Source of the DNA: Peribolospora baueri
Lineage: Eukaryota > Basidiomycota > Peribolosporomycetes > Peribolosporales > Peribolosporaceae
DNA: 64,000 nt
Assembly (NCBI GenBank): GCA_029717555.1
Contig: JAMDHS010000006.1
Coordinates: 248,001 to 312,000, forward strand
Reading direction: 5' to 3'
Shown here: positions 20,882 to 29,494 of the stretch, in pieces
Numbering within the stretch: position 1 is the first letter of the stretch
Layout of the letters: every line of letters begins with the position of its first letter
Position numbers and translations under genes: made by a program
Notes under the pieces: model-generated
What the model saw: only the letters and a program-made list of their open reading frames with translations
Databases searched by the model: none
What the model was told of the DNA's origin: nothing

Positions 20882-22413
20882 TCCTGATTGGATGCTGCGG
20901 GTGGTCGAGAGTAGGACTGGGGGGATAAAAGAAGAATAGGAATTGAGGGACGGCGATGAGTGTGCTCTGAAGGCAGAGGAAGGTGGTAAAGGAAAGAGGA
21001 GGAAGAGGAGCGAGAGGGTAGGAAGATGAGCGGGATATTAAGCGCTGTCTGTCCGGCCCGGTGTCGCCCGCGTTGTTTCCCACGTAACTATTATGAGAGA
21101 ATCGCAGCACAGCCTGAAGATGGGACAGCAGTTAGACTTTGACTACGGGCGGGCGTTCTACTAGACCGAACGCAGGCGGTGATGGAAAGAGGGTGGTGCG
21201 ACTGGCGGCCGAGTCGGCGTGGGACGGCACGGAGGAAGACTTCGGGGAAAAGCCACTAGGCTCATCGCAACCGCCAAACATAATGGTGGCCAAGCAGGCG
21301 ATGACTTGTACTGTAAGGCAGCGAGCGCAGGCGGAGTTAGGAGAGTGGTCCAGCGAACTTGAGTGGCTGCAGAAAGTGTGGGTGAGAACGGTAAGGCACA
21401 GAGTGCGGTGAACTATCGTCTCGTAGCCTCCGTCGTTCTCATCCTACGTATCTAGCCTGGTTCGCAAATGAGGGGGCGGTTTCGACTCGCCCCAACCGAC
21501 TCGCTTTGCGCACCTCCAAGTATGTGCGGTACCTCGAGCAGTAGTTGCGTGCGAGGATACGCCATGCCACACATAATTATAGGTTTTACCGTCGATAGGC
21601 GCCGGGAAGGCTGTGCACGACACAGACAGGGATATTGTGGGGGAGCCAGTCAATCACTCCGTTCCTCCGTCTTGCTCCCGTGATTGCGATCGCTCTTCAT
21701 CCGCCACCTGCAAGGGCGACCTCATCTCGGCCGGGCGAGAGCAACTAGGGACGCCGGACGGCCCCCTCCTCCGTCTCCTGGGGACTACGGACGTCGTCTG
21801 CGGGCCCCATCCATTCGATCTACCTACAGTCCTTACTGTATGAGATGACCCTCCCTCGTGGTGCTCGCCGCTTGCTTCCATTCCCTCCACGTCCGTACGA
21901 AGCGCTGGAACGCCCCTTCCGACCCTCCTCGCTGCTCCCGGTCCTTCCACCGGCCTGTGCTGGAACCGCTTCGACAGACGAGAGCGACATACCGATGGCG
22001 AGATGATCTGGCGATCAGGGAATGTTCGTGCCGCTCGCCCAGCTGCCGGCGGCGGACCGGCCTATGAAGCCGATGCGGGTGAGTGCAATTGTGAGCATCG
22101 AGGAGCGGTTGGGGTTGATGAGCTGTGCAACGAGTCGGGTACGTACCGCTGCGAGCGACTCCACTCTCTTTATTGCACTCGGTCGAGAATGATGTTTGTT
22201 CTCTCCGTCCATCTCTCGAACCAGTGAATGAGGTTTCTCCCTCGACGGCCTGCGAATAGCCCCCAGCTGCCGCAACTCGCAAACGCCGTACGATGGTCAC
22301 GCGCCGTTATCTTATCACCGCTCACAGCGATCCGAGGTCCGTCACGTACGGCCACCAACGACAACCACCTCCACCTTCCACACGCCGTTCTTCACTTCGT
22401 TTTAGCCCGCGCA
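20882..22413. other. divergent intergenic, GMC gene to NmrA relic
   Basis: About 1.5 kb. The first 200 bases upstream of the GMC ATG are probably its promoter. The rest has short frames without motifs. I recognise no gene. Confidence 0.4.
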
Positions 22414-23071
22414 ATGGCCAGCAGCCGTCCCATCCTCGTTACTGGCGCTGGCGGGGGCATTGGTGGAGTGAGCTGCACGGTCACCCAACTCCTCCCCCAA
22501 CGCGACCTGCCCGTGCGGGCGATGGTGCACCGCGACGATGATCGCGCGGACGCGCTGCGCGCCCTCGGCGCAGAGGTCGTCGTGGGCGACCTCAGCCGCC
22601 CGGACGACGTCGCATGTGCTATCGACGGTGCGAGTCGGATGTTCTTCAGTATGAGCGTGTCGCCGGATTACCTCGAGGCGGCCACGGTCGTCGCGACGGT
22701 GGCCCGCGCAGCCGACACGCTCGACACCGTGGTCAACATGTCACAGATGACGGTGTCGCACATGACGGCGGCCGACACGGGCGAGTCCCACCAGCAACGG
22801 CTGCACTGGCTTTCCGAACAGGTCCTCAACTGATCCGGCCTTCCCCTCGTTCATATCCGGCCCACCATCTTCCTCGACAACCCGCTGTTCACCAGCCTCG
22901 CTGCGCGGTCCATCGCCGACAGGGGAACCATCGAGCTCCCCTTCGGCACCGGTCGTACCTCTCCGGTCGCTGCAGTGACGTCGCTAGCGTCGTCGCCACC
23001 GTCCTGCAGGACCCGCACCCACACCTCGGACAGGTGTACGAGCTGACCGGGCCCCGATCGCAGAACAGCCT
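22414..23071 (+). pseudogene. NmrA-like NAD(P)-binding protein, N-terminal two-thirds (broken)
   Basis: Rossmann-fold NmrA/HSCARG-like protein; relatives bind NAD(P) and act as redox sensors or reductases. Starts MASSRPILVTGAGGGIGG (the usual motif is GATGxIGG) and continues VRAMVHRDDDRADALRALGA, FFSMSVSPDYLEAATVVA, ESHQQRLHWLSEQVLN. A TGA at 22,831 stands where relatives have Trp (LNWSGLP), after which the same frame runs SGLPLVHIRPTIFLDNP to GRTSPVAA. A single-base shift near 22,972 then moves the reading to DVASVVATVL and YELTGPRSQN. Homology stops at 23,071. The missing C-terminus lies inverted at 26,074-26,310. There are no introns, and the sequence style is bacterial-like. Not functional as it stands. 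Confidence 0.85.
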
Positions 23072-23399
23072 AGCGTTGATAATCAGCGTGTTCTTTAGCA
23101 CGGCAGGACGAAAGAGAGTGGGAAGGTTAGGAAACCAGAAACAGGTCAGATCGAAGGATGACACTATCTTCTTCGCTACTGCCTCGCTCGCTTACCGCTT
23201 GCATAATCTCCTTGGCGGCAGCGCTGACAGATTCGTCGCTGGTGATGTCGAGCGGAATGATTTGAACGCCTTCCACTGGAACCGGCTTTCGCATCGTCGC
23301 AATTATATGATGTCTCTTGGCCATCAGCTCTTTCACTAGTGCAGGGCCGATTCCGCGAGAGGCGCCAATCACAACCGTGGTGGGGCCGTCTAAGGACAT
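23072..23399 (-). pseudogene. short-chain dehydrogenase, N-terminal fragment only
   Basis: Starts MSLDGPTTVVIGASRGIG (TGxxxGIG-type cofactor motif) and goes on LVKELMAKRHHIIATMRKP and IIPLDITSDESVSAAAKEIM. The first exon is 23,399-23,196, with a GTAAGC donor. Exon 2 opens at 23,092 with NTLIINA, the start of the SDR NNAG-type motif, and is cut off at 23,072, where the NmrA relic begins. The catalytic Tyr-x-x-x-Lys half is absent. I could not identify the missing half; the sequence at 26,311, where an inversion would have put it, has no clear SDR match beyond a possible glycine of NAG. Confidence 0.8.
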
Positions 23400-24001
23400 G
23401 GTCGTGACGAAGACGAACTTGGATGACGGTCAAAAGGTCGGTTGCCTCAATGAGGATAGGACACTGCTCTTTCTGCTGCTTCCCTGATCCTTTGCGTTGG
23501 CCATGTTCCTGGTTTCATATTCAATGCGACAACGCAGGCTGGCTTCGACAAATGCGTATCCATCCGCTGTATACATCTGTATTTCCTGATCACCTCCTGT
23601 TTATGCAGACAGAAGATGACGAAACGAAGCGTTCGTGCCTGGTTGGAGCAGATCTGCACTCTGCAGCGCAGAATTTCCGACGACGGTCTCGGCGGCGCCG
23701 GCCAAAACATAAGAATAAACGCCGTTTCTGATTTCAATTTCCCTTGCTACGCATGACCCCCGAGAAGGTCCACCAAGCGTCCGGAAACACGAACAACGGC
23801 TCGCAAAAAACATCTACAGGATGCGTCCGTTTAAGATCTCGAGATAAAATTTCAGGCGCGAATACTATAGAGCGAGAACGCCTATCGGTCCCTAGTCTCA
23901 TAGCTCGCTCACGATGACTCAGCGATCCACGACGAGATCAAAGAAAACATGGATTCTTTGGAGTTGAAATCGAAGCGCTAGTGAGCGATGCCCTCACTTC
24001 C
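23400..24001. other. intergenic, SDR fragment to intact SDR gene
   Basis: About 600 bases, AT-richer than average. Presumably the old promoter of the SDR fragment plus the 3' end of the next SDR gene. No gene seen. Confidence 0.4.
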
Positions 24002-25283
24002 TCAAAACGTCTGCCCAACGAGCTCCTCGCTCAGCTTCCATAGCTTGAGTGCATCCTCCTGTGTATGATTAATAGACATGATGAGAGGAGCGAGATGAGA
24101 TTTTATCTAAAGCGAAAGAAAAATGGCCTGAGACACCAACTCACGTCACTTCTCGCATGAGATGCCACGATGTCGTTGGCAAGGCTGCAGTCCACGAGGT
24201 AGGACCCTGGCTCGGAGTCGATCGATGGATCGAGCGCCGCTACCACGGTCCTGGGTAATGGATTGACCGAGTCGGGTATGGCGTATTAGCATTGAACGGT
24301 ATATAAAAGTCGATATGACACCGCTCTCCCGAACTTCACTCACGTAGCGGCGCCTTGAGGGACCGACTTGAACTTTTCGGGCCCGAGTGTCCCATCCTCA
24401 TTCAGAAGTCTAAGGGAGACCATCTCCTCCTTGCTCAAGTACCTCCCCAGATTAGTCCAGATTACGCCTGGGTGCAAACTGTACGACAGTATGCCATCGG
24501 CCTTGAGACGAAGGCAGAGAGCCTTGGAGAAGAGAATGTTGGCGGTCTTTGATTGGCCGTAAGCGACCCACTTGTCGTAGGTACTTCCGGAGGAGAAGCC
24601 GGGGTCGTCGAAGTGAATTCCTGATCTGGCGTGGCCCTGGGATGAGACGTTGATGATGCGTGGCTTGAAGCCTGAGGATGAAGATTCGGTAGCGGCGGCA
24701 CGCAACTTGGGCAAGATGAGGTTCGTAAACGTGAAGTGTCCCAAATGATTCGTGCCGAATTGGTTCTCGAAGCCGTCAGCCGTGGTCATGTAAGGGCACG
24801 CCAATACGGCCGCGTTGTTGATAAGGAGATGGATCGGCTCAGGCCAGCTCATAACCTCCGCCGCAGCCTTGTGGACGCTCGCTTGCGACGAAAGGTCGAG
24901 GATGAGGGGACGCATATTCGCGCTTGGGGTCTCTTGCCGGATCGAGGTGAGAACGGAAGAAAGCTTGGTAGCGTCGCGTCCCGTCGCAATGACGAGCCCC
25001 GCGCCGTTCTTTGCAAAGACGCGGGCCACTTCGGCACCAAGGCCACCTGGAGAACCGCCTGTGACGAGGACTGGGCGAGAAAGAAGATAGAATAGAAATT
25101 CACGAATTAAAGGGAAAAAGAACACGAAGAAAACAAAATTCAACTGGTTAGCGCTATACGTGCTCATCCTTCAATGTCCAAACTAGATTTTTCAGGATCA
25201 CCATTGAGCCCCTTCACCCTAGCGGCAAAAGCCGACGCGACTTCGTCCGCCGTGGTCTTCGCGCTGAAAGAACGAGCAGCCAT
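24002..25283 (-). CDS. short-chain dehydrogenase/reductase (retinol-dehydrogenase/WWOX-like), four exons
   Basis: Intact NAD(P)-dependent oxidoreductase of about 335 residues. Exons 25,283-25,202, 25,070-24,344, 24,250-24,145 and 24,058-24,002 join in frame. An N-terminal region (MAARSFSAKTTADEVASAFA) precedes the cofactor motif VLVTGGSPGGLGAEVARVFA, formed across the first intron. Then LILDLSSQASVHKAAAEV, LLINNAAVLACPY (NNA motif), NQFGTNHLGHFTFTNLILP, IINVSSQGHARSGI (catalytic Ser), YGQSKTANILFSKAL (Tyr-x-x-x-Lys), and HPGVIWTNLGRYL. The last exons give TTVVAALDPSIDSEPGSYLV and EDALKLWKLSEELVGQTF. Substrate unknown. It lies inside the inverted segment and would have pointed the same way as NmrA before the inversion. 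Confidence 0.9.
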
Positions 25284-26073
25284 GATGGTGTTGCTAATGC
25301 AATGGATATGTTCAACCGAACAAAGAGTTGTGAAGAGCTGTGCAGAGTAGTGAAGGACGGTTAAGAGAAAGTGTGGTGTGTAGTACAGGGTTCTCCGAGA
25401 CGACGAAAAGTTGGTCTGTTTTATACTTTCTCTGCTCGCTTCACTACACCATGGGATGCTGGCTGGAAGCAGCTGACGCAGCCCTGGCTCGCACGAACAA
25501 TTAATTGCGCGTCGTTTTGGCCGACTCGGCTCGTGCCGATGCCGCCCTGACGTCACGCGCTGCGGTCCTAAGCGGCTGTAAGCGGGGAATCGCGCTCCGT
25601 CGTGCGTCGTCTCGATTAACCATTGACAGCGGGTGCCTATCCTGTTTCCATCGTTTACACTCGGGCGGAAGCGAGCGGGAGACGATGTGCCGGAGTTTGT
25701 CGTCCACTCTTGGCACTCGACCGCAAGCTTGCGGCGTGTACATGTCGAGCGATGGGAGAGGAGAGGCAGTCGCCAGAAACGATGATCGTTCTTTTGCCGA
25801 ATGCCATCACATTATTGAAGAAGCGGCCTACCTGTCAAGTCGGGGATTATCCACTGCTCGGCGGAACGACGCACGGCAATTGCAAGTTAGCGCACCGATT
25901 CGGTCTTGCCAGATGGATAATGTATGAACGGCAGCAAAGGGAAGAGGCTGCCGAGAGTACCGGGGCGTCTCCGAGAACAGCAAGCGCACGTCTCGTGCGT
26001 ATTTCTTCGCCTTGTCGTCGGTTGGAATGGCTGCCAGTTATTTGTTGCGTGACGTCCTCTTTCCGGTCAGAAC
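25284..26073. other. intergenic, SDR promoter to NmrA C-terminal relic
   Basis: 790 bases upstream of the intact SDR. The leader near 25,300-25,430 is AT-rich. Beyond it I see only short frames without motifs. Confidence 0.4.
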
Positions 26074-26310
26074 TCATGAGGTGAACAGCGTGGCTCGTTC
26101 GGCGACAAATGCTTCGAGCGCGCGTCTTCCCGTGATCCGTTCAAAGTCCCCTGCCATGGTGGCGATGTGCTCCTGAGTGTGCGGCGGGAATTTTGCGGGG
26201 AAGAGGATGCGCTCGGCCCATGTGTCGAACGGTACATCTACGTAGGACACGGGCCTGTTGAGCGCGCGCGAGTATTCCTTTGCGACGTCGCTCGCGCATC
26301 CATTCAGGCT
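26074..26310 (-). pseudogene. NmrA-like protein, C-terminal third (detached and inverted)
   Basis: A 79-codon open frame running from 26,310 to a TGA at 26,076-26,074: SLNGCASDVAKEYSRALNRP, VSYVDVPFDTWAERILF, HTQEHIATMAGDFERITGRR, LEAFVAERATLFTS. This is the usual C-terminus of NmrA-family proteins (EYSxALGRPVxYVDVP..EW, then LTGRxxxxxxxFV). Relatives have about ten extra residues between ATMA and the LTG motif, so a small in-frame deletion is likely. It has no start codon of its own and no N-terminal domain upstream on this strand. It continues in frame from the end of the 22,414-23,071 relic. Confidence 0.85.
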
Positions 26311-26891
26311 GGCTGCTGCCTACGTCCTGAAGACACGGCCCCCGAGAACGGGCGTGCCAGCTTCTTCTCCCTCTTCTCCCTCTCCCTCGTCCGCTCCAGA
26401 TCCACAAGCTGCTCTGCATTGGTCGACTCTCCTTCTTCGCTGTACGATTGTACACGCATAGTCCCCGAGCGTCCCATACGCGCAGCATTTGCATTTGTCG
26501 CTCAGTCTGCTGTCCGTTGTCTACTACCGGTAGTGTGTATGCCCTGGTTATGACCGTGACAGGGAGAGTAACCGTAGCCTTGAAGAGAGGCCGCCATGAT
26601 CGAAGGCATGCCTTACGGCGGAGATCGATGGGCCCGCCCCACTTCTCGGGAGACGGGGATGAAAGTGAGAAAGGAGAGGTTACGACTGCCCGTAAGACGG
26701 TGGGGCGCCGGATCGTCAATTTCAAGGGTGATGATCGGAGAGCGGATTTTTCCAGGTGATATGATTATGTAAGCAACGTTGCACGCGTGGACCGCCGACC
26801 AAAGGTCCTCATATGTATGAGGGTAACTTGGTTTATCTCCACCATAATCACGTACTGTTGGCTAGGTATGGACTGGGCTCGCCTGTCCATG

Positions 26892-26909
26892 GAAGCCTCC
26901 AGAAGTTTC
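26892..26909 (+). promoter_or_regulatory. candidate heat-shock element (distal)
   Basis: GAAGCCTCCAGAAGTTTC reads as GAAnn(C)TCnnGAAnnTTC: four alternating units with one mismatch. It lies 289 bases upstream of the Hsp20 ATG. Confidence 0.55.
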
Positions 26910-26974
26910 CAGGGCCGTCGGTGCGAGGTCCAAGCTCCATCGGCGGTGACGATACGTGTTGCTGGGCCCCGCGT

Positions 26975-26987
26975 TTCGAGAATGTTC
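26975..26987 (+). promoter_or_regulatory. perfect three-unit heat-shock element
   Basis: TTCGAGAATGTTC is a perfect TTCnnGAAnnTTC site for heat-shock factor, 211 bases before the Hsp20 start and about 93 bases before its TATA box. Confidence 0.75.
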
Positions 26988-27078
26988 ATGTCTCATCTGG
27001 GGAGATCCAGAAAGGTCAGGCTCATCTCATCAACGTCAGTGCTCTTCTCACAGACGGCGGGACGCAAGGGCTCCAAAG

Positions 27079-27086
27079 TATATAAG
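27079..27086 (+). promoter_or_regulatory. TATA box of the Hsp20 gene
   Basis: GTATATAAG, 112-119 bases before the ATG and downstream of the heat-shock elements; the usual layout of a stress-induced fungal promoter. Confidence 0.7.
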
Positions 27087-27197
27087 CGCCACCTCAGGTC
27101 GTGTTGCTCACATCTCATCAGCTCAAAACAGGTCAAACAGACATCTCTTGCAGTTCACTCTCACCCATCTCTGATACCGATCCACCAACGACAAGCA

Positions 27198-27854
27198 ATG
27201 GCTCTCACCACCCGCGACCTCTTCGGCGACGAGCTCTTTGGCGACTTCTTTGCCACTGATCCTTTCGCCGTCTTCTGGCCCCAAGGCTACACTCGCAGCG
27301 AGCCCGCTGGTCAAGGCCAGGGCCAGGTTGCTCAGAATCAAGGCCGTATTTCGAAGTGGATGTCTCCTCGTACGGTAAGTTCCCTCACTTTTCTCCACCT
27401 CGGAGCGAGGAACATGAAAGAAGGATTACAAGTTGGTGTTGACTGATGTTTTGGTTGCATTTCTGAAATGAATTACCAGGACATCGTCGATCACGAAGAC
27501 AAGACCGTCTTCCACATCGATCTTCCTGGCATCCCTCGCGAGTCGCTGAAAGTCGACCTCGACGAGCGCACCCACCAGCTCACCATCTCTGGCGAATATT
27601 CGTCCGAGACGAAGACGGGCGGTGAACAGGAACAGAAGCAGGACGCAGGCAAGGAAAAGCAGAAGACGACGGGACCGAGGCACATCCTCCGTGAGAGGAG
27701 GTGGGGCAGCTTCTCGAGGACGTTCACCGTGCCCAAGGACACCAAGGGCGAGGACGTGAAGGCGGACCTCAAGAAGGGTGTGCTCTCCGTCGAGATCAAG
27801 AAGAGGCAGCCGGCCTTGCCTGCCGAGTCCGTTAAGTCGATCACCGTAGGATAA
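27198..27854 (+). CDS. small heat-shock protein, Hsp20/alpha-crystallin family, two exons
   Basis: ATP-independent holdase chaperone of about 184 residues. Exons 27,198-27,374 and 27,480-27,854, split by a GTAAGT...CAG intron. The N-terminus is short and Phe-rich (LFGDELFGDFFATDPFAVFW). The alpha-crystallin domain starts at the exon junction (DIVDHEDKTVFHIDLPGIPR) and continues SLKVDLDERTHQLTISGEY. A Lys/Glu/Gln-rich insert of about 30 residues sits where fungal Hsp20s often carry one. It is followed by RRWGSFSRTFTVPKD and the hallmark ADLKKGVLSVEI (usual A-x-x-x-n-G-v-L). It ends with a weak I-x-I-type tail (SITVG). Upstream heat-shock elements fit the call. Confidence 0.95.
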
Positions 27855-29494
27855 GCGAAGGGTCGTCTCGGTCGGTGCAGCGGGCCACCGATGCCAATGT
27901 GTTCCACGCACAAACACACAATCTTAGCGTCCACTTCATGACCATCTTTTTTCTTCCATGTTTTTTTTTTTCGACGCGTCCCCTTCCTTCCATCTGTATT
28001 CGCTTTAGGTTATGCACCTTGACCCTGTTTGAACCCCAGCATCTGTATTCTCGCTTTTATCTGTACCTTTTCTGCGCCGCTTTTCTTTCCACATCGGCCT
28101 TAACCTTCTCGTCCATGTCACCGTAAATGAATCAAAGCCATTGAGTATCATCTCTGTACGTCTGACGTCTCGTTCGTATCGATAGGTGATAGGAAGGAAA
28201 ACAAGGTCGGCTGAGTGGCAGGCCGACGACTCGAAAGTGGCAGATCGCCCTGACGGAATGACAGGCCTGTTCGCAGCCGTTAGCGTTCATCCAAGGCCAC
28301 CCGGTCCATTTGACCGTCTATGCAGCTCAGCACTCCAATCTCGCCTGCTCTCCATCCTTCGCCTTCCATTATGCCCTCCCCGGCCCATCTCGCCCCGCCT
28401 TCATGAGGAGATGAGATTGCGGCGCTTACTTGGATTCCTTACCGCGCAATCCCGAAACATTTCGACGAAAATATATATTTTCTCGTCATTCCCGTTGGCT
28501 CATAACCGACCGTGCCTTCTTAACACGAGCAGTAGATACCGCCGACGTGGCAGCAGTCCGATCGGCAGTCGAGGCGTAGCTCGAGGCGGTTTTGCCTCGC
28601 GTAGGACGCCTCGCGTAGGCACGTCTCCGGCCCGAGCACGAAAAGATGACCGGCGTTCTCCGCCGGGGTCCCTGCTCCCTCGGTTGCCAGATGGCAAGCG
28701 AGGCACCGGGTGATAAGGCTCGTCTGTGAGGCCGCCTTGGACGCTCCAGTTCGCGGTCGCTTCCAGCAAACTCCGTTGGATACCACATGGACAGCTCGAC
28801 GACGGCCTCAAATCAGACCAGTCGATGGGAGACAAGTGCTGGCGCAGATACGGACAGCATGTAAGGACGAATGGGGGCGATTCGACGTCGAGCTGACCTC
28901 GTACGAGCAGTGAAGGATCACGCATTGCGCGTGGAATCTCATTACGCCGGTCGAGATATCACGTGAGCGACTATCCCTTCCGTCGCTTATCCCCCTCTCT
29001 CTCTGTGCTCCATGCTCGCTTCTTCGTTTCTTCCGCTTGCTTGCCTACAAAAATATAACTCCACTTGCAACCGCGCTCTCCGCCGCCGTGCCTGAGCCGC
29101 TGATCCACATGCTCAGCGAAGGAAGAGAGATAAGAGCGGGGCGCCCGGCGTCTGCTCTTCCTTCTCTCCTGTCTTGCTGGGCCACTCTCTCTTCCGTCGT
29201 TCCGTTCGGACTCAAAAAGTCGGATTGCAGGTCGTGACATATCTAACCACGGCGTCTTCACAAGTCGTACGACTAGTTAGCGACGGGCGGGGGCCGAGGA
29301 GGACGAGTACAGATAAAAAAGGAAGCAAGGCTTCCGTCCTCCTTCCTTTCTTTCGTCCTCCCCTCCTTCCTTCTTCCCCCTTCAGGCGTTCATCCGCCCC
29401 TTCCCCGCTCCTCCAGGCGCTCATCCGCCCTCCTCCCTCCACATCGTCGCGCTTTTCCACCTTTCGGTCCTCTCTCCGGTCGTAGACATTCAAC
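27855..29494. other. intergenic, Hsp20 to FCY2-like permease
   Basis: About 1.6 kb. It contains the cysteine-rich minus-strand frame listed separately, an AT-rich stretch at 28,470-28,490, and a CT-rich leader (29,330-29,480) just before the permease ATG. No further gene supported. Confidence 0.4.
28520..28786 (-). other. unassigned cysteine-rich open frame, possible exon or gene fragment
   Basis: A minus-strand frame ending at a TAA. From an acceptor-like CACAG near 28,723 it reads TSLITRCLACHLATEGAG, HLFVLGPETCLREASYARQN, DCRSDCCHVGGIYCSC. Seven of the last 55 residues are Cys, clustered at the end, which is unlike random GC-rich frames here. I found no ATG-led upstream exon or signal peptide. 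It may be the last exon of a small gene, a relic, or chance. No function assigned. Confidence 0.3.

What the first reader, a model, noticed from the sequence alone, without database searches (positions are those of the whole stretch)
22414..26310. An inversion of about 3.2 kb split one NmrA gene into two oppositely oriented halves
The + strand NmrA relic reads YELTGPRSQN and stops matching at 23,071. The minus-strand frame starting at 26,310 reads SLNGCASDVAKEYSRALNRP, exactly what follows in the family. Flipping 23,072-26,310 puts the two in the same frame with no bases to spare. This is seen directly; the inversion is the inferred cause. Later decay (TGA for Trp, one-base shift, small deletion) shows the event is not brand new.
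Basis: partly seen in the sequence, partly recalled or inferred. Interest (0 to 1): 0.8.

Follow-up and report, generated by a model that had tools for sequence, protein, structure and literature searches.

The report
Small inversion split an NmrA-like gene
In a probable fungal genome, a stretch of about 3.2 kb seems to have been flipped around, which cut one enzyme-like gene into two halves on opposite strands and also cut a neighbouring gene; this is an ordinary kind of gene loss, caught fairly early in its decay.

Summary
A profile of 27 bacterial relatives finds four strong pieces in the window, in family order: columns 3-137, 139-186 and 186-217 on the + strand (22414-23069), then 218-268 on the minus strand from 26292 down. 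Each half was found at one place in the genome. Inversion is the best explanation, with corrections. (1) The literal flip of 23072-26310 is out of frame; a CAGCCT shared by both junctions must be counted once, leaving 5 surplus residues. (2) The same break truncates a second gene, SDR2': a 1-kb match to contig C14, where SDR2 continues, ends at the NmrA junction. (3) A plain two-break inversion predicts the rest of SDR2 from 26311 on; it was not found, so DNA was probably lost there. (4) NmrA decay fits neutral divergence of about 7% or less, younger than the SDR2 duplication. No long repeat lies at both breaks. No relatives or reads were available, so the inversion is inferred from one genome. 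Ordinary genome evolution; low interest.

The parts
22414..22830 (+). N-terminal part of the NmrA-like relic (family columns 3-137)
   Evidence: Pfam NAD_binding_10 6.9e-12 and NmrA 2.1e-08; family profile 217.8 bits
22831..22833 (+). TGA where all 16 close relatives have Trp
   Evidence: Trp in 16 of 16 at this column; one search reports '1 TGA' inside its match
22834..22977 (+). second part of the relic (columns 139-186), same frame as the first
   Evidence: 68.3 bits
22974..23069 (+). third part of the relic after a one-base shift (columns 186-217), ends at the break
   Evidence: 34.7 bits; one search ends its match at 23066; frames read
23066..23071 (+). CAGCCT at the proximal junction, found again inverted at the distal junction
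   Evidence: 13% of 5000 random pairs of 30 bases share 6 or more, so weak alone
23073..23399 (-). SDR2': N-terminal part of a second short-chain dehydrogenase gene, cut at the NmrA junction
   Evidence: Pfam adh_short profile 3-75, 26.1 bits, just under its cut-off of 26.6; match to C14 stops at 23073
23073..24082 (-). 1-kb stretch with a 75% identical relative at G000:C14:41015-42057
24002..25283 (-). SDR1, short-chain dehydrogenase gene that appears intact, inside the inverted segment (exon ends read by eye)
   Evidence: Pfam adh_short 5.2e-24; NCBIfam NF004845 3.3e-65, 220.5 bits, below its cut-off of 414
26074..26310 (-). C-terminal part of the NmrA-like relic, with stop (columns 218-268 matched from 26292 down)
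   Evidence: Pfam NmrA positions 224-282, E 0.01; family profile 43.3 bits
26306..26311 (-). inverted copy of CAGCCT at the distal junction
26311..27200 (+). flank beyond the distal junction: upstream region of an HSP20 gene, no SDR2 remainder recognised
   Evidence: HSP20 domain at 27468-27851

Best explanation
The ancestral order was NmrA, SDR1, SDR2, all on one strand. Two breaks, one inside NmrA (between family columns 217 and 218) and one inside SDR2, released a segment that was rejoined the other way round by end joining, with loss of DNA at the distal end (the 3' half of SDR2), then or later. This left the NmrA N-terminal half on the + strand, its C-terminal half on the minus strand about 3.2 kb away, an apparently intact SDR1 between them and a truncated SDR2'. 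Both cut genes have since decayed. Shown: the pieces, their family columns, one place found for each half, the double truncation at one junction. Inferred: the ancestral order, the flip itself, end joining, and the loss at the distal end.
For: Four profile pieces follow one another along the family and switch strand once. Each half has one place in the 22.1-Mb assembly. The match of SDR2' to its C14 relative ends at 23073, next to the NmrA junction, so the break is marked independently from its other side. On C14 the SDR2 reading continues with adh_short profile positions 79-173, so SDR2' is truncated. No long inverted repeat lies at both breaks, which disfavours ectopic recombination. Relic decay is mild: 3 of 58 invariant residues changed plus one Trp-to-stop and one frame shift.
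Against: The 3' half of SDR2 was not found from 26311 on, where a plain inversion puts it. The joint has 5 surplus residues compared with 16 close relatives. No fungal relative with the uninverted order could be examined, and no reads.
Confidence: 0.78

Rival explanations
1. A more complex event of three breaks: the 1-kb stretch shared with contig C14 arose by staggered breaks in the same event that split NmrA, and the SDR2 remainder was carried to C14.
For: The shared stretch ends at the NmrA junction. C14 holds the last SDR1 exon (read by eye) but no earlier SDR1 exon in the 20 kb examined, and SDR2 beyond the point where the window copy is cut: the complementary pattern. Kilobase duplications from staggered breaks are described for Drosophila inversions (PMC3355041, passages).
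Against: The two copies differ by dS 0.33, about 0.165 per lineage if the lineages are equal. At neutral divergence 0.165 the NmrA relic would show about 18 of 58 invariant residues changed, but 3 are; 0 of 2000 simulations for each of three start genes had 3 or fewer. dN/dS of 0.32 hints that both SDR2 copies were constrained for part of the time, but its bootstrap range is 0.15-0.71.
Confidence: 0.08
2. The C-terminal piece is left from a second NmrA copy: an inverted duplication of NmrA followed by complementary deletions.
For: The 5-residue surplus means that the joint is not exact.
Against: No other copy of either half was found in the genome at E <= 10; the two halves do not overlap in family columns.
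Confidence: 0.07
3. Assembly misjoin: the order is an artefact.
For: No reads were available; the assembly has 178 contigs.
Against: Misjoins usually need repeats (general knowledge). Window 22000-27500 matched only itself and C14 at 75% identity, though that search skips simple repeats and very common words. Two gene halves in consecutive family columns would be a coincidence for a misjoin, and the relic is decayed.
Confidence: 0.05

Closest known systems
Inversions joined by non-homologous end joining, with gene alterations at the breakpoints (Drosophila; PMC3355041, passages read; PMC5080602, abstract and opening paragraphs)
   Same: Breaks without long repeats, genes altered at breakpoints.
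   Different: Those inversions are defined against an uninverted chromosome; here only one genome is available. Their duplications are inverted copies at both breakpoints; here only 6 bp are shared, and the 1-kb relative is on another contig.
NmrA-like / NAD(P)H-binding families (Pfam PF05368, PF13460), actinobacterial relatives L017-L022 and L043-L052
   Same: Same family over columns 3-268; N-terminal part 52-68% identical to these relatives.
   Different: Broken: a stop, a frame shift, a strand switch, small losses and a 5-residue surplus near the break.
TIGR03649, ergot alkaloid biosynthesis protein EasG type
   Same: Best NCBIfam hit of the bacterial relative L019 (58.4 bits).
   Different: Far under its cut-off of 256.4 bits, and not among the hits of the three window pieces scanned; not a member.

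Membership tests
Chromosomal inversion | Two parts of a once continuous sequence now in opposite orientation on one molecule | tested here: met
   Consecutive family columns on opposite strands of one contig, each half found once
Chromosomal inversion | Reciprocal junctions: the sequence cut at one end reappears beyond the other | tested here: not met
   Met for NmrA, not for SDR2, whose remainder was not found from 26311 on. Claimed only as inversion with loss.
Chromosomal inversion | Uninverted order in a relative | not testable with these tools
   The assembly 'has no relatives here'
Inversion by ectopic recombination | Long inverted repeats at both breakpoints | tested here: not met
   Only 6 bp shared at the junctions; the nearest longer pair (17 nt, 82%, 22598-22614 and 26281-26297) is not at the proximal break
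Inversion by staggered breaks | Inverted duplication at both breakpoints | tested here: inconclusive
   CAGCCT at both; 13% of random pairs do as well
NmrA-like family PF05368 | Score above the gathering cut-off | tested here: met
   N-terminal piece 34.5 bits against 27; C-terminal piece alone 15.9, below it
NmrA-like family PF05368 | Activity or co-regulator function | not testable with these tools
   A decayed gene; function not assayed

The most novel reading that the evidence does not exclude
One complex repair event split NmrA and SDR2, flipped SDR1 and moved or copied the SDR2 side to the C14 locus, so that three genes were remodelled at once.
Probability: 0.08. Interest if true: 0.35.

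Novelty: new member of a known kind. Interest (0 to 1): 0.22.

Why it matters
It is a clear single-genome example in which protein family columns map both ends of a small inversion, and in which a second truncated gene checks one of the breaks. It also shows that gene annotation could call two unrelated fragments where one gene was lost. It changes no general view of genome evolution.

Tried and rejected
Search for the SDR2 remainder from 26311 on. The best tblastn match of the SDR2 second part in the window is at 26958-27038 (E 0.75), on the strand and side that an inversion predicts; I take it as chance because it lies in the HSP20 upstream region over a heat-shock-element-like TTCnnGAAnnTTC (motif recalled) and no DNA match accompanies it. 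Over 26311-29310 the local alignment score of 26 exceeds the maximum of 20 shuffles, 23. It lies at 28202-28327, behind the HSP20 gene; a score of 30 on the minus strand elsewhere in the window exceeds it. Both taken as chance, neither strictly excluded.

A templated origin of the surplus bases: an 11-base match to C14 (ATGGATGCGCG) and 10-base matches elsewhere; not tested against a null, not claimed.

One event for both the C14 duplication and the NmrA break: disfavoured by dating. Caveat: this assumes neutral decay at equal rates in both lineages.

The Rfam 18S rRNA search that was to place the organism gave no answer twice. The organism was not identified; 'probable fungus' is inferred from genes that read as spliced and a SAM decarboxylase of Pfam PF01536, which I recall as the eukaryotic type.

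Literature: three searches, listings and abstract starts seen; passages of PMC3355041; abstract and opening paragraphs of PMC5080602. I did not search for this gene or locus by name.

Rows dropped: before the count of 58 invariant columns I left out the out-of-frame start of the third piece and the residues SLNGC at the joint; with them one search gives 7 of 65 changed (1 of 27, 1 of 14, 1 of 12, 4 of 12). Of the 27 relatives in the profile, the 16 closest were used for the invariant count. The loop pattern was found in 18 of 27 relatives (the 16 close ones, L055 and L056), all with the short loop; in 9 of 27 the pattern did not match.

Full report
Observation. The window is G000:C145:248001-312000 of a 22.1-Mb assembly in 178 contigs. 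The + strand frame from 22414 runs to a TGA at 22831-22833, continues in the same frame (SGLPLVHIRPT...), shifts by one base near 22971-22977 and ends ...YELTGPRSQN. The minus-strand frame from 26310 reads SLNGCASDVAKEYSRALNRP...TLFTS* and lacks 12 and 2 family columns in frame. Pfam places the N-terminal piece at NmrA positions 4-97 and the C-terminal piece at 224-282, the latter weakly (E 0.01).

Significance. I built a profile from 27 bacterial relatives: the 6 loci and L043-L063, 21 loci. That search found the family in 21 of 301 genomes at E <= 1e-20, the centre genome G003 included; a phylum sample gave 2 of 396, its centre G002 included. A scan of all 1626 window frames of 20 or more residues gave four strong pieces: 217.8 bits (columns 3-137), 68.3 (139-186), 34.7 (186-217) and, on the minus strand, 43.3 (218-268). 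The next score is 4.7, and the best in the reversed window is 4.8. The C-terminal piece therefore continues the family just where the + strand pieces stop. Each half was found at one place in the genome at E <= 10; those searches score only the best candidates. A Pfam NmrA search lists 13 matches, this one among them.

The joint. CAGCCT occurs at 23066-23071 and, on the minus strand, at 26311-26306. Counted once, the frame is kept. Between ELTGP and the end of EYSR the pieces then hold 19 residues, against 14 in all 16 close relatives (by eye). Most of the surplus (CASD) seems to lie inside the C-terminal piece, because LNG fits the relatives' MNG or DG. Whether it is ancestral, filler or later insertion is open. 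The shared 6 bases are weak evidence of mechanism: 13% of 5000 random pairs of 30 bases share as much. No long inverted repeat lies at both breaks, so I favour end joining; that is inference.

A second cut gene. Window 23073-24082 matches G000:C14:41015-42057 at 75% (77.8% without gaps), and the match stops at the NmrA junction. On C14 a SAM decarboxylase gene is followed by the last exon of SDR1 (by eye), with no earlier SDR1 exon found in the 20 kb examined, and then by SDR2, whose readings cover adh_short positions 3-75 and 79-173. In the window SDR1 appears complete and SDR2' is cut after its first part. One junction therefore breaks two genes, which supports a real break there. A simple inversion would put the rest of SDR2 from 26311 on. 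Lenient blastn, tblastn and local alignment did not find it: over 1 kb the score is 23, against a maximum of 24 in 60 shuffles, and 16 of 63 other 1-kb stretches do as well or better; positive controls scored 506 and 94. Two weak matches on the predicted strand, at 26958-27038 and 28202-28327, are judged chance for the reasons given under Tried and rejected. In the whole genome the second part of SDR2 (residues 81-195) has a strong match only at C14; the other matches that reach past residue 88 are C112 (4-91, E 0.14) and C143 (8-146, E 0.9). Loss at the distal end, during or after the flip, is the simplest reading.

Dating. Of 58 residues invariant in 16 relatives, 3 are changed in the relic, plus one Trp-to-stop. 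Relatives left out in turn change 0 to 12 of 55 to 70. Random substitution of three relatives' genes gives 3 or fewer changes in 78-82% of runs at 2% divergence, 31-32% at 4%, 3-4% at 7%, 0.2-0.3% at 10% and in 0 of 2000 at 16.5%. The two SDR2 copies differ by dS 0.33, about 0.165 per lineage if equal. So the C14 duplication is probably older than the NmrA break. dN/dS 0.32 (0.15-0.71) is too uncertain to date the SDR2' truncation itself.

Conclusion. Most likely a real, moderately young inversion with loss, cutting NmrA and SDR2' and carrying SDR1. It is a new instance of a well-known kind of event. The ancestral order is inferred, since no relative of this genome is held.

Noticed in passing
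window 23073-24082; G000:C14:41015-42057 (L016, L023): Partial duplicate of the SDR1 end plus SDR2 between a SAM decarboxylase gene and a possible coiled-coil gene (by eye); C14 keeps only the last SDR1 exon, so C14 is probably the derived place.
   Followed up: partly
window 22414-23069: The NmrA-like gene shows no intron in the parts read, was found once in the genome, and has actinobacterial relatives at 52-68% identity with patchy occurrence (21 of 301 genomes of one family; 2 of 396 of a phylum sample). Possible bacterial origin, but fungal relatives could not be searched.
   Followed up: partly
window 26975-26987: TTCGAGAATGTTC, a heat-shock-element-like motif (recalled) upstream of an HSP20 gene.
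   Followed up: no
L023:7313-7491: Open reading (by eye) between the SDR1 exon and SDR2 on C14, whose last part is better conserved in the window than its surroundings; perhaps another small gene, decayed in the window.
   Followed up: no
window 23073-24082: Against C14, the window copy has 108 GC-to-AT and 72 AT-to-GC differences; direction of change not polarised by an outgroup.
   Followed up: no
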